Origin: Candidatus Nitrosotenuis uzonensis
GTDB taxonomy: Archaea > Thermoproteota > Nitrososphaeria > Nitrososphaerales > Nitrosopumilaceae
Length of the DNA: 64,000 nt
Direction of reading: 5' to 3'
Assembly: GCF_000723185.1 (NCBI RefSeq)
Contig: NZ_CBTY010000009.1
Span: 248,001 to 312,000 of the forward strand
Below are positions 12,833 through 26,259 of this stretch, piece by piece. The position numbers were made by a program, and so were the translations under genes. Position 1 is the stretch's first letter, and every line of letters begins with the position of its first letter. The notes under the pieces are model-generated. The model was not told the origin of the DNA, did no database searches, and saw only the letters and a list, made by a program, of their open reading frames with translations.

Positions 12833-12943
12833 TTCGATAATAAATCTAATTCAAGAAAATCAAGACAACCAATAACAGATAGAATAAATCCAAGTCCCAG
12901 TTTTTCTTAGTTGTGGGGTCGTAGCCTAGCCTGGTAGGGCGAC

Positions 12944-12964
12944 TATGATGAAAGTCATCGCTAA
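12944..12964 (+). other. Noncanonical 21-nt intron in tRNA-Trp (position 28/29)
   Basis: The fold is a relaxed bulge-helix-bulge: helix GGCG/CGCT, 3-nt bulge ACT, inner hairpin ATGAT-GAAA-GTCAT, and 3-nt bulge AAA. Cutting after the second base of each bulge (AC|T and AA|A) gives exactly the anticodon stem that pairs with CCTGT. The splice position is in the 5' strand of the anticodon stem. Excised by the tRNA splicing endonuclease; RtcB would ligate. Confidence 0.8.
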
Positions 12965-12973
12965 AGGCTCCAG

Positions 12974-13026
12974 AAGTAAAAACCCAAACTGATTTCACAA
13001 GATGATGTGAGTTTGGAGCTGCAGTG
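12974..13026 (+). other. Canonical-position 53-nt intron in tRNA-Trp (37/38)
   Basis: The intron follows G37 of loop CTCCAG and resumes at A38 (13027). A strong internal hairpin CCAAACT/AGTTTGG (12984-12990 and 13010-13016) fills it. The central helix next to the cut sites is imperfect: CTCC would face GCAG with one C-C mismatch. TTTGGAGC (13013-13020) could alternatively pair with the anticodon loop. Confidence 0.75.
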
Positions 13027-13064
13027 ACCTGTAGATCGCCGGTTCAACTCCGGTCGGCCCCACG

Positions 13065-15350
13065 TTACTTATTTTTCTCTCTTAGCACATTTAGCGCAGA
13101 GCCCTGTCTGAACCATTCTATTTGTGCAGAGTTATACGAATGTAATAGTTCAATCTCGTCTTTGCTGCCGTCCAAGTGATCTAGTATGCACTTTACAGAT
13201 CTTCCTTGTGCCAACTTGTCAAGATTTACAAGTGAGATTCTATCATCCTCACGTACCTTGTCATAGTCTGAAGGGTTTGAGAAGGTAAGCGCAAGTATTC
13301 CCTGTTTTTTCAGATTCGTCTCATGTATTCTTGCAAAGCTTTTTGCAATCACTGCGCCGCATCCTAGATATCTTGGCGTTAGAGCCGCGTGCTCTCTACT
13401 ACTGCCTTCCCCGTAGTTGTTATCTCCTATTATCACCCACTTGAGCCCACGCGATTTGTACTGGCGGGCTATGCTTGGAAGCGATTCTACATTTCCTGTG
13501 AGAATGTTTTTGCCTTTTCCTACTTCGCCTGAAAACGCGTTTACCGCGCCAAGCAAAAGGTTATCACTTAGCTTATCAAGGTGTCCCCGGTACATTAGCC
13601 ACGGCCCTGCAGGCGATATGTGATCTGTGGTGCATTTGCCCTTTGCTTTCACCATGACTGGCATCCCAGTAAGATCTTTTCCGTTCCACTTTTCAAACGG
13701 TTCTAATAGTTGAAGACGGGTGCTGTTTTTGTCAACTAGGACTTCCACAGAATCTGGGTCTTGTGCAGGCGGGACATAAACATCAATACCGGTCTTAAAT
13801 CCACTTGAAGGCACTTCTGGCGCAACCTCAGGAGGTTGCAGTTTGAACTTTGTTCCATCTTTGGCAACCAGTTCATCAGATACTGGATTGAATGATAGTT
13901 TACCTCCAAGAGATAACGCAATTATCAGCTCTGGACTACCAATAAAATTCATAGTGTTTCTCTTCCCGTCATTTCTTCCAGGAAAATTTCGATTGAACGA
14001 TGTGATTATGGTGTTAGCCTCATCTTTTTTTAGCTCCGGTCTGCTCCACTGTCCTATGCACGGTCCACATGCATTTGCAAGTACTGTAGCTCCAATTTCT
14101 TTGAGTACTTGCATCTGCCCGTCACGCTCAATTGTAGCTCGTATCTGTTCAGAACCAGGCGTCACAAGCAACGGAACTTTGGCCTTGACTCCTTTGCTTA
14201 TCGCCTGTTGTGCGATAGAGGATGCTCGTGACATGTCCTCGTACGATGAGTTTGTACAGCTTCCAATCAACGCGACCGAGATCTCATCAATGTATTTGTT
14301 CTCTTTTACATCTTTTGCAAGTTTTGATATCGGTCTTGCCAAGTCAGGTGTGTGTGGCCCCACTATGTGCGGCTCAAGTTTTGAAAGATCAATCTCTATT
14401 ACCTTGTCAAAATATTTTTCAGGATTTTGTTCCACTTCCGGATCTTCTGTGAGCAAGTCTTTGTGTTTGTTTGCAACATCTGCAATCTCTGCTCTCCCTG
14501 TAGCCCTAAGGTAGACATCCATTTTTTCATCATATGGAAATATTGAACAAGTAGCGCCTATTTCTGCGCCCATGTTTGTGATTGTGGCTTTTCCTGTACA
14601 GCTTATTGTCTTTGCGCCTGGGCCAAAGTACTCGATTACAGCGTTGGTACCTCCCGATACGGTAAGCTGTCCGGCCACATACAAGATGATGTCTTTTGGG
14701 GCAGTCCACCCATTCATCTGTCCTTTAAGATACACACCTATTCTCTTCGGATACAATAGCTCCCAAGGCATACCTGCCATCACTTCTGCAGCATCCATAC
14801 CTCCAACACCGACGGCAATCATACCAAGACCACCAGCATTGGGTGTGTGAGAGTCAGTTCCGATCATAAGGCCGCCAGGAAACGCATAGTTTTCGAGGAC
14901 CACCTGATGAATGATTCCAGCTCCGGGCTTCCAAAATCCCGCACCGTATTTTCTTGCAGCGGATTCTAAAAACTTGTACACTTCGTTGTTTTCATATATG
15001 GCAAGCCGGGTGTCTTCCTCAGCACCTACCTTGGCCTGAATTAAATGGTCGCAGTGAACCGTAGTCGGAAGCGCAACCTGTTTTAGGCCTGCCTGCATAA
15101 ATTCTAGCATTACAGTTTGTCCCGTTACATCCTGCAGTGCAACCCTGTCAGGCTTTAAGAAGACGTAGCTTTTACCTCGTTCCGGCTCTTTTTGGTCATA
15201 TTCTGACATATGACCTATTAGAATTTTTTCTGACAATGTCAGAGGTCGGTTGACCAGTTTTCTGAATTTTGAAATGTTTTGCTCTAGCTTTTTGTAAACA
15301 TCAAGGACAAGTGCAGATGTAGTCTGAATTTCCATTTCCGGGTATCGCAT
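13065..15350 (-). CDS. acn: Aconitate hydratase
   Basis: 761 aa, the size of mitochondrial-type aconitases. Isomerises citrate and isocitrate in the TCA cycle using a [4Fe-4S] cluster held by Cys in SCTNSSYEDM and ANACGPCIGQW. Other signatures are TVHCDHLIQA, GTDSHTPNAGGLG and the C-terminal swivel-domain GDNNYGEGSSREHAALTPR. Starts at ATG 15350. Its 3' end nearly touches the tRNA-Trp gene on the other strand. Confidence 0.97.
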   Translation of the reverse strand: MRYPEMEIQTTSALVLDVYKKLEQNISKFRKLVNRPLTLSEKILIGHMSEYDQKEPERGKSYVFLKPDRVALQDVTGQTVMLEFMQAGLKQVALPTTVHCDHLIQAKVGAEEDTRLAIYENNEVYKFLESAARKYGAGFWKPGAGIIHQVVLENYAFPGGLMIGTDSHTPNAGGLGMIAVGVGGMDAAEVMAGMPWELLYPKRIGVYLKGQMNGWTAPKDIILYVAGQLTVSGGTNAVIEYFGPGAKTISCTGKATITNMGAEIGATCSIFPYDEKMDVYLRATGRAEIADVANKHKDLLTEDPEVEQNPEKYFDKVIEIDLSKLEPHIVGPHTPDLARPISKLAKDVKENKYIDEISVALIGSCTNSSYEDMSRASSIAQQAISKGVKAKVPLLVTPGSEQIRATIERDGQMQVLKEIGATVLANACGPCIGQWSRPELKKDEANTIITSFNRNFPGRNDGKRNTMNFIGSPELIIALSLGGKLSFNPVSDELVAKDGTKFKLQPPEVAPEVPSSGFKTGIDVYVPPAQDPDSVEVLVDKNSTRLQLLEPFEKWNGKDLTGMPVMVKAKGKCTTDHISPAGPWLMYRGHLDKLSDNLLLGAVNAFSGEVGKGKNILTGNVESLPSIARQYKSRGLKWVIIGDNNYGEGSSREHAALTPRYLGCGAVIAKSFARIHETNLKKQGILALTFSNPSDYDKVREDDRISLVNLDKLAQGRSVKCILDHLDGSKDEIELLHSYNSAQIEWFRQGSALNVLREKNK

Positions 15351-26162: not shown

Positions 26163-26253
26163 GGGCCGGTAGCTCAGCTTGGCTGGAGCGTTCGACTGAT
26201 AAAACAACCTTTCAGAGATCGAAAGGTCGAGAGTTCGAATCTCTCTCGGCCCA
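26163..26253 (+). tRNA. tRNA-Ile (GAT) with a 16-nt canonical intron
   Basis: Acceptor GGGCCGG pairs with TCGGCCC; discriminator A at 26253; T arm GAGAG-TTCGAAT-CTCTC. Anticodon stem TTCGA/TCGAA, loop CTGATAA. The intron 26202-26217 sits after A37; the bulge-helix-bulge uses CTGA (32-35) with TCAG, bulges TAA and AGA, cut after the second base of each. Mature length 75 nt. Confidence 0.93.
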
Positions 26254-26259
26254 CTATTT

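What the first reader, a model, noticed from the sequence alone, without database searches (positions are those of the whole stretch)
12915..13062. tRNA-Trp with a canonical and a 21-nt noncanonical intron
Excision after the second base of each 3-nt bulge at 12944-12964 restores a perfect anticodon stem ACAGG/CCTGT and a CTCCAGA loop. Standard tRNA scanners often miss this gene or report a wrong anticodon (GAT, GAA or CAT can be misread inside the insert). The inner hairpin of the small intron is closed by a GAAA tetraloop.
Basis: partly seen in the sequence, partly recalled or inferred. Interest (0 to 1): 0.75.

Follow-up and report, generated by a model that had tools for sequence, protein, structure and literature searches.

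The report
Twice-interrupted tRNA-Trp with guide-like intron
The only tryptophan tRNA gene of this ammonia-oxidising archaeon is interrupted by two removable inserts, which is unusual but shared by its whole family; the larger insert still carries parts of an RNA guide that in related archaea matches the tRNA's own uncut joint, while some relatives have swapped in a gene with no inserts.

Summary
Window 12915-13062 is the only tRNA-Trp(CCA) gene found in its 99.7%-complete Nitrosopumilaceae genome. It carries a 21-nt intron at 28/29 (12944-12964) and a 53-nt intron at 37/38 (12974-13026). All 50 full-length homologues extracted from the family carry both introns. Excision at 28/29 restores a perfect anticodon stem in every one, and pair 29:41 covaries across the junction. 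Such introns are a known kind.

The less ordinary part is the canonical intron. It holds an invariant box D'/C' pair (CTGA, ATGATGT) and an invariant element complementary to the anticodon loop, at box C/D guide spacing for C34, but no box C or D. In sister families the sequence before D' pairs with the unspliced 3' splice junction, placing C39 at D'+5, and covaries with it (51/58 vs 25.5+/-3.6 when swapped). The window's family has lost that second guide. In some Nitrosopumilus and Nitrosopelagicus-like genomes an intronless allele replaces the gene at the same locus (at least four changes on a flanking-gene tree). Splicing and methylation are untested.

The parts
12915..13062 (+). tRNA-Trp(CCA) gene, unspliced, 148 nt; discriminator A at 13062
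   Evidence: conserved in 50 family homologues
12915..12943 (+). 5' exon: acceptor strand, D arm, positions 1-28
   Evidence: invariant in alignment A1 apart from a few columns
12944..12964 (+). noncanonical intron, 21 nt, at 28/29
   Evidence: excision gives a perfect anticodon stem in all 50 family genes; 29:41 covaries
12938..12941 (+). GGCG, 5' strand of the 4-bp BHB middle helix of the small intron (D-arm 3' strand)
   Evidence: pairs with 12959-12962
12959..12962 (+). CGCT, 3' strand of the same middle helix, inside the small intron
12965..12973 (+). middle exon AGGCTCCAG, positions 29-37, 9 nt
12970..12972 (+). anticodon CCA (34-36)
   Evidence: ARAGORN on the spliced sequence
12974..13026 (+). 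canonical intron, 53 nt, at 37/38 (boundaries ambiguous by 1 nt)
   Evidence: middle helix 32-35/GCAG has a conserved mismatch opposite C34 (read)
12979..12988 (+). AAAACCCAAA before D': place of the position-39 guide in sister families; not complementary here (3 of 10)
12989..12992 (+). box D' CTGA
   Evidence: present in 50/50 family genes, 3-10 nt before C'
13002..13008 (+). box C' ATGATGT
   Evidence: invariant in 50/50 family genes
13012..13020 (+). TTTGGAGCT, complementary to anticodon loop 30-38; C34 lies at +5 from 13021
   Evidence: 8-9 bp in most family genes, 12 nt between C' and 13021 in 45/50, 13 in 5/50
13021..13024 (+). GCAG at the place where box D would lie; not CUGA; also the 3' strand of the canonical BHB middle helix
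   Evidence: GTAG 28, GCAG 21, GCGA 1 of 50
12984..13016 (+). intron hairpin stem CCAAACT (12984-12990) / AGTTTGG (13010-13016)
   Evidence: the 5' strand varies only in pairing-compatible ways in most of the family
13027..13062 (+). 3' exon, positions 38-73 (C39 at 13028)

Best explanation
This is the cell's only tRNA-Trp, made from a precursor with two BHB introns that the splicing endonuclease removes. The 21-nt intron at 28/29 opens the anticodon stem; the 53-nt canonical intron at 37/38 is a reduced form of the archaeal tRNA-Trp intron that guides 2'-O-methylation. It keeps one kink-turn (boxes D' and C', a likely L7Ae site) and an antisense element for the anticodon loop at the spacing that would direct methylation of C34, but has no boxes C and D (absent in all relatives seen here) and, in this family, has lost the second guide that pairs with the unspliced 3' splice junction and places C39 at D'+5. 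SHOWN by sequence and comparison: gene, introns, covariation, boxes, complementarity, loss of the second guide, intronless replacements. INFERRED: splicing, L7Ae binding, C34 methylation, and an order in which the guide pairing (which covers the splice junctions) must be released before the canonical intron is cut.
For: Two introns: (perfect stem after excision in 50/50 family genes; 29:41 as G-C, A-U or C-G). Single Trp gene. Endonuclease: two tRNA_int_endo paralogues (180 and 208 aa frames), as expected of the alpha2beta2 type that PMC4090602 assigns to Thaumarchaeota. Fibrillarin present. D'/C': CTGA 50/50, spacer 3-10 nt variable in sequence, ATGATGT 50/50. Anti-C34 element and 12-nt spacing. 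Position-39 guide in other families and classes: placement chosen by pairing alone falls next to CTGA, CAGA, CGGA or AGGA in the genera with strong pairing; 9-10 of 10 pairs in families f2, f6, f7 in part, f8, f9, f11, f20, f54. N+2/N+3 pair with the last two intron bases 51/58 times, with mature 36/37 only 29/58; swap null 25.5+/-3.6, none of 20,000 swaps as high. Precedent: intron-guided Cm34/Um39 in pre-tRNA-Trp (PMC7994747); Cm34 found in Sulfolobus acidocaldarius tRNA-Trp, C34 and C39 listed as predicted C/D targets (PMC7668247).
Against: No box D consensus and no box C in the family, so a full C/D guide particle of the standard kind cannot assemble on the intron. In this family the strand after C' also pairs with the strand before D' as an intron hairpin, so its conservation may serve folding rather than guiding. 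The anti-C34 element is invariant together with its target, so it gives almost no covariation. The canonical BHB middle helix has a conserved mismatch opposite C34. The 29-genus covariation set was chosen at 7 or more pairs of 10, which favours pairing at N+2/N+3. No RNA data.
Confidence: 0.72

Rival explanations
1. Two ordinary BHB introns and nothing more: the 3' half of the canonical intron is conserved because it must form the BHB and intron hairpin, and the C/D look is inherited but functionless in this family.
For: Box C, box D and the 39 guide are absent in the family; an intron hairpin forms from the strands next to D' and C'; intronless alleles at the same locus show that the introns are dispensable.
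Against: CTGA and ATGATGT lie outside the BHB and are invariant in 50/50 genes, while the loop between them varies in length and sequence. TTTGGAGCT is kept unchanged while the strand opposite drifts to G-U pairs.
Confidence: 0.3
2. The D'/C' kink-turn recruits L7Ae to help fold or splice the precursor, or to stabilise the excised circular intron, without guiding methylation.
For: In this family only the kink-turn and the adjacent stem survive; L7Ae binding to kink-turns is general in archaea (PMC5539422, abstract); circular tRNA-Trp introns accumulate in Thermococcus (PMC9014305).
Against: It does not explain why the anticodon-loop complement and its 12-nt spacing are kept, nor the splice-junction covariation in sister families.
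Confidence: 0.25
3. Pseudogene, or a gene whose small insert stays in a working tRNA, with the real tRNA-Trp elsewhere in unsequenced DNA.
For: Assembly has 14 contigs; the gene scans poorly in default tools.
Against: Genome 99.7% complete; no other CCA tRNA found; exons near-invariant in the family; compensatory change at 29:41.
Confidence: 0.02

Closest known systems
Multi-intron archaeal tRNA genes with noncanonical BHB introns (Crenarchaeota and Thaumarchaeota; tRNAscan-SE 2.0 lists 107 noncanonical introns in thaumarchaeal genomes, PMC8450103)
   Same: Small BHB intron at a noncanonical position plus a canonical 37/38 intron; alpha2beta2-type endonuclease genes.
   Different: Nothing essential; here the 28/29 intron of tRNA-Trp is shown to be family-wide and seen also outside the family.
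tRNA-Trp intron box C/D guide (sR50 of Pyrococcus; Haloferax volcanii pre-tRNA-Trp, guiding Cm34 and Um39; PMC7994747)
   Same: Same tRNA, same intron site, D'/C' boxes, antisense to the anticodon loop (C34); in sister families also antisense to position 39.
   Different: About 53 nt; no box C or D; target base at 39 is C rather than U; the 39 guide matches the unspliced junction; in the window's family the 39 guide is lost.
Intronless archaeal tRNA-Trp
   Same: Occurs at the same syntenic locus in some Nitrosopumilus and Nitrosopelagicus-like genomes.
   Different: Not present in the window's genus; different anticodon stem (ATGGT/ACCAT or ACGGT/ACCGT) and acceptor stem.

Membership tests
Archaeal BHB tRNA intron (small intron) | 3-nt bulge / 4-bp helix / 3-nt bulge, cut after the second bulge base | tested here: met
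   GGCG/CGCU, AC^U and AA^A; conserved in the family. No outer helix directly adjacent, so a relaxed form.
Archaeal BHB tRNA intron (small intron) | Excision restores a regular tRNA | tested here: met
Archaeal BHB tRNA intron (canonical intron) | BHB with 4-bp middle helix 32-35/intron end | tested here: inconclusive
   3 of 4 pairs; position opposite C34 is C or U in the family (read)
Archaeal BHB tRNA intron (both) | Cleaved by the cognate splicing endonuclease | not testable with these tools
   only the genes of two endonuclease paralogues were found
tRNA-Trp intron box C/D guide (sR50-like) | Located in the canonical intron of tRNA-Trp | tested here: met
tRNA-Trp intron box C/D guide (sR50-like) | Boxes D' and C' | tested here: met
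   CTGA and ATGATGT in 50/50
tRNA-Trp intron box C/D guide (sR50-like) | Boxes C and D | tested here: not met
   no CTGA 3' of C' in any of 50; RTGATGA upstream in only 3 of 50; GYAG at the D place
tRNA-Trp intron box C/D guide (sR50-like) | Guide for C34 with C34 at +5 from box D | tested here: inconclusive
   complementarity and spacing fit, but box D itself is missing
tRNA-Trp intron box C/D guide (sR50-like) | Guide for position 39 with 39 at +5 from box D' | tested here: not met
   window 3 of 10 pairs; family sample 2-5 of 10. Met in sister families.
tRNA-Trp intron box C/D guide (sR50-like) | Cm34 and Nm39 present and intron-dependent | not testable with these tools
   needs RNA

The most novel reading that the evidence does not exclude
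Across the phylum that holds these archaea, the tRNA-Trp intron is a minimal one-kink-turn guide (D'/C' only, the BHB standing where the C/D kink-turn would be) whose two antisense arms pair with the two splice junctions of its own unspliced precursor, tying methylation of 34 and 39 to splicing. The window's family has kept only the C34 arm, and an intronless allele has displaced the gene repeatedly at one locus.
Probability: 0.42. Interest if true: 0.65.

Novelty: new variant of a known kind. Interest (0 to 1): 0.48.

Why it matters
The two-intron gene itself is a known kind and explains why this essential tRNA is missed or mis-named by simple scanners. The wider pattern matters more. Nature has run the deletion series: lineages with both guide arms (Nitrosocaldus), with one (the window's family) and with no intron (some Nitrosopumilus and Nitrosopelagicus-like strains). 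That makes it directly testable whether the intron is kept for methylation of the Trp wobble base (thought to prevent misreading of UGA, PMC7668247) and whether guiding is coupled to splicing.

Tried and rejected
Rfam with permissive thresholds gave only chance matches at the gene. The minimum-energy register of the small BHB (extra A28-U44 in gene numbering) was rejected because other genera have A.C there and the product stem would be wrong. The box-C-like ATGATGA inside the small intron was rejected as a real box C: RTGATGA upstream of D' occurs in only 3 of 50 family genes. A full C/D guide particle was rejected for lack of boxes C and D. A position-39 guide in this family was rejected (2-5 of 10 pairs, background level). 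A pattern search for introned tRNA-Trp in some Nitrososphaeraceae genomes found only chance matches, so their tRNA-Trp was not identified. The classic papers on the euryarchaeal Trp intron are not in the held library, so their intron sequences were not compared.

Full report
WHAT IS THERE. Window 12915-13062 (+) is a tRNA-Trp gene of 148 nt. Removing 12944-12964 (21 nt) and 12974-13026 (53 nt) leaves a 74-nt tRNA that ARAGORN names tRNA-Trp(CCA). Left unspliced, it is missed by default ARAGORN and by Rfam at gathering score. The genome (G000, 1.64 Mb, 99.7% complete) has 39 Rfam tRNA hits. ARAGORN finds no other CCA anticodon among them; the ones it could not resolve were read by eye and none carries CCA. 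The gene has one match in its own genome and the intronless allele described below has none.

THE SMALL INTRON IS REAL. Homologues were found in 15 of 17 genomes of the genus and through the family. Fifty full-length genes were extracted and all have both introns. The small intron is 19-29 nt with a variable loop. Cutting at 28/29 gives a perfect 5-bp anticodon stem in all 50. The script scored 71 genes from this and other families; 69 give a perfect stem (one of these, an f4 gene, was probably cut wrongly by the script), and the two failures are from family f19, where the insert sits elsewhere. Among them pair 29:41 occurs as G-C, A-U and C-G, and 27:43 as A-U, U-G and U-A. Position 29 is the first base after the intron, so this is compensatory change across the junction. 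The register consistent with all is middle helix GGCG/CGCU with bulges AC^U and AA^A. The inner GAAA tetraloop is not conserved. The same 28/29 intron, ending GTTAA|GGG, is visible in other classes of the phylum, while several families of the same order lack it and some have a D-arm insert instead. It is therefore old, or gained repeatedly.

THE CANONICAL INTRON. In 50 of 50 family genes it holds CTGA, then 3-10 variable bases, then ATGATGT. These match boxes D' and C' of archaeal C/D RNAs with the short spacer of a kink-turn or kink-loop. After C' comes a nearly invariant AAGTTTGGAGCT, whose TTTGGAGCT pairs with anticodon-loop positions 30-38 (8-9 bp in most). The distance from C' to the place where box D should begin is 12 nt in 45 genes and 13 in 5, and C34 then falls at D+5, the rule for C/D guides (established knowledge). 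But the tetranucleotide there is GTAG or GCAG, not CUGA; no CTGA follows; and no conserved box C precedes. The strands before D' and after C' also pair with each other as a hairpin in this family.

WHAT SISTER FAMILIES SHOW. A covariance model of the gene found tRNA-Trp precursors in other families and classes. In many, the ten bases before D' pair with the 3' splice junction so that position 39 lies at D'+5: 10 of 10 pairs in Nitrosocaldus and family f6, 9 of 10 in f7 (part), f8, f9, f11, f20 and f54, 8-9 in f51, 8 in f40 and f19. When the placement is chosen only by best pairing, without looking for a box, it lands directly before CTGA, CAGA, CGGA or AGGA in these genera. Sliding the target by one or more bases drops the mean from 6.5 to 3-4.8 pairs. 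Guide bases N+2 and N+3 face the last two bases of the intron: they pair in 51 of 58 cases with the intron end, but in only 29 of 58 with mature positions 36 and 37. Swapping between genera gives 25.5+/-3.6, and none of 20,000 swaps reached 51. The set was chosen at 7 or more pairs of 10, which inflates this somewhat, but the range of matching dinucleotides (AC:TG, CT:GA, TT:AA, TA:AT, TC:AG, AA:TT, TG:AC) is hard to get otherwise. The guide thus fits the UNSPLICED precursor. In the window's family the same place scores 2-5 of 10, the background: that guide has been lost while the kink-turn and the C34 element stayed.

INTRONLESS REPLACEMENTS. 53 of 250 family genomes, in two genera, carry an intronless 74-nt tRNA-Trp(CCA) with other anticodon and acceptor stems. 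In the cases compared it lies at the same locus, between the same neighbours (an upstream gene and the aconitase gene). On a tree of the flanking aconitase, intron state needs six changes, at least four forced by well-supported branches. Twenty-five of the loci examined share the identical allele. Exchange between strains or repeated replacement both fit; the tree is of a neighbouring gene, not of the species.

HOW IT MOST LIKELY WORKS. The precursor is spliced by the alpha2beta2-type endonuclease (two paralogues found; type assigned to Thaumarchaeota in PMC4090602). The canonical intron is best read as a shrunken tRNA-Trp guide intron. Known relatives are sR50 of Pyrococcus and the Haloferax pre-tRNA-Trp intron, guiding Cm34 and Um39 (PMC7994747). 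Cm34 was found in Sulfolobus acidocaldarius tRNA-Trp, and C34 and C39 are listed there as predicted C/D targets (PMC7668247). Because both antisense arms cover the splice junctions, guiding and BHB formation exclude each other in one molecule, which would put modification before splicing, or require action in trans. All of this paragraph is inference from sequence, apart from the gene contents.

MEMBERSHIP AND NOVELTY. As a two-intron tRNA the gene is an ordinary member of a known kind. As a C/D guide it fails two tested features (boxes C and D; the 39 guide), so it is not filed as an sR50-type guide; it works like part of one, at best. Searches of the held open literature found no description of a guide-like tRNA-Trp intron in Thaumarchaeota, but the classic papers and specialist databases could not be read, so novelty of that part is uncertain. 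From memory, the contig lengths of G056 (1,645,259) and G099 (2,045,086) equal those of Nitrosopumilus maritimus SCM1 and Cenarchaeum symbiosum, so both well-known genomes would carry the two-intron gene.

Noticed in passing
L079, L122-L124, L240-L268, L354-L361: Intronless tRNA-Trp(CCA) alleles replace the two-intron gene at the same syntenic locus; found in 53 of 250 Nitrosopumilaceae genomes; 25 loci share one identical 74-nt sequence although they fall in separate groups on a flanking-gene tree.
   Followed up: partly
L062-L075, L081, L090, L329-L340 (canonical Trp intron): Guide before box D' complementary to the unspliced 3' splice junction with position 39 at +5, covarying with the intron's last two bases; lost in Nitrosopumilaceae, in genus g35 of family f7 and in most of f4.
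   Followed up: yes
G006 C29/C52; L131, L138, L144, L150, L151, L169, L172: Assemblies of relatives often break inside or next to this tRNA gene (in G006 the two contigs overlap by about 62 nt within it), as if the gene were repeated in the sample or were an integration site.
   Followed up: no
L109 (G000:C9:180404-180506): tRNA-Met(CAT) of the same genome seems to carry a noncanonical intron 5' of the anticodon.
   Followed up: partly
L121 (G000:C11:166490-166700): tRNA-Arg(CCT) seems to carry a noncanonical insert in the D arm; ARAGORN misses it.
   Followed up: partly
window 26163-26254: tRNA that ARAGORN leaves unnamed; reads as tRNA-Ile(GAT) with an intron after the anticodon.
   Followed up: partly
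L077, L306: In family f19 the tRNA-Trp intron keeps a 39 guide (8 of 10 pairs, D' AGGA) with a hairpin between D' and C', but the C34 element is missing: the reverse of the window's family.
   Followed up: partly
window 13065-15350 (-): An aconitase-like frame ends 2 bp from the tRNA gene, convergent with it.
   Followed up: no
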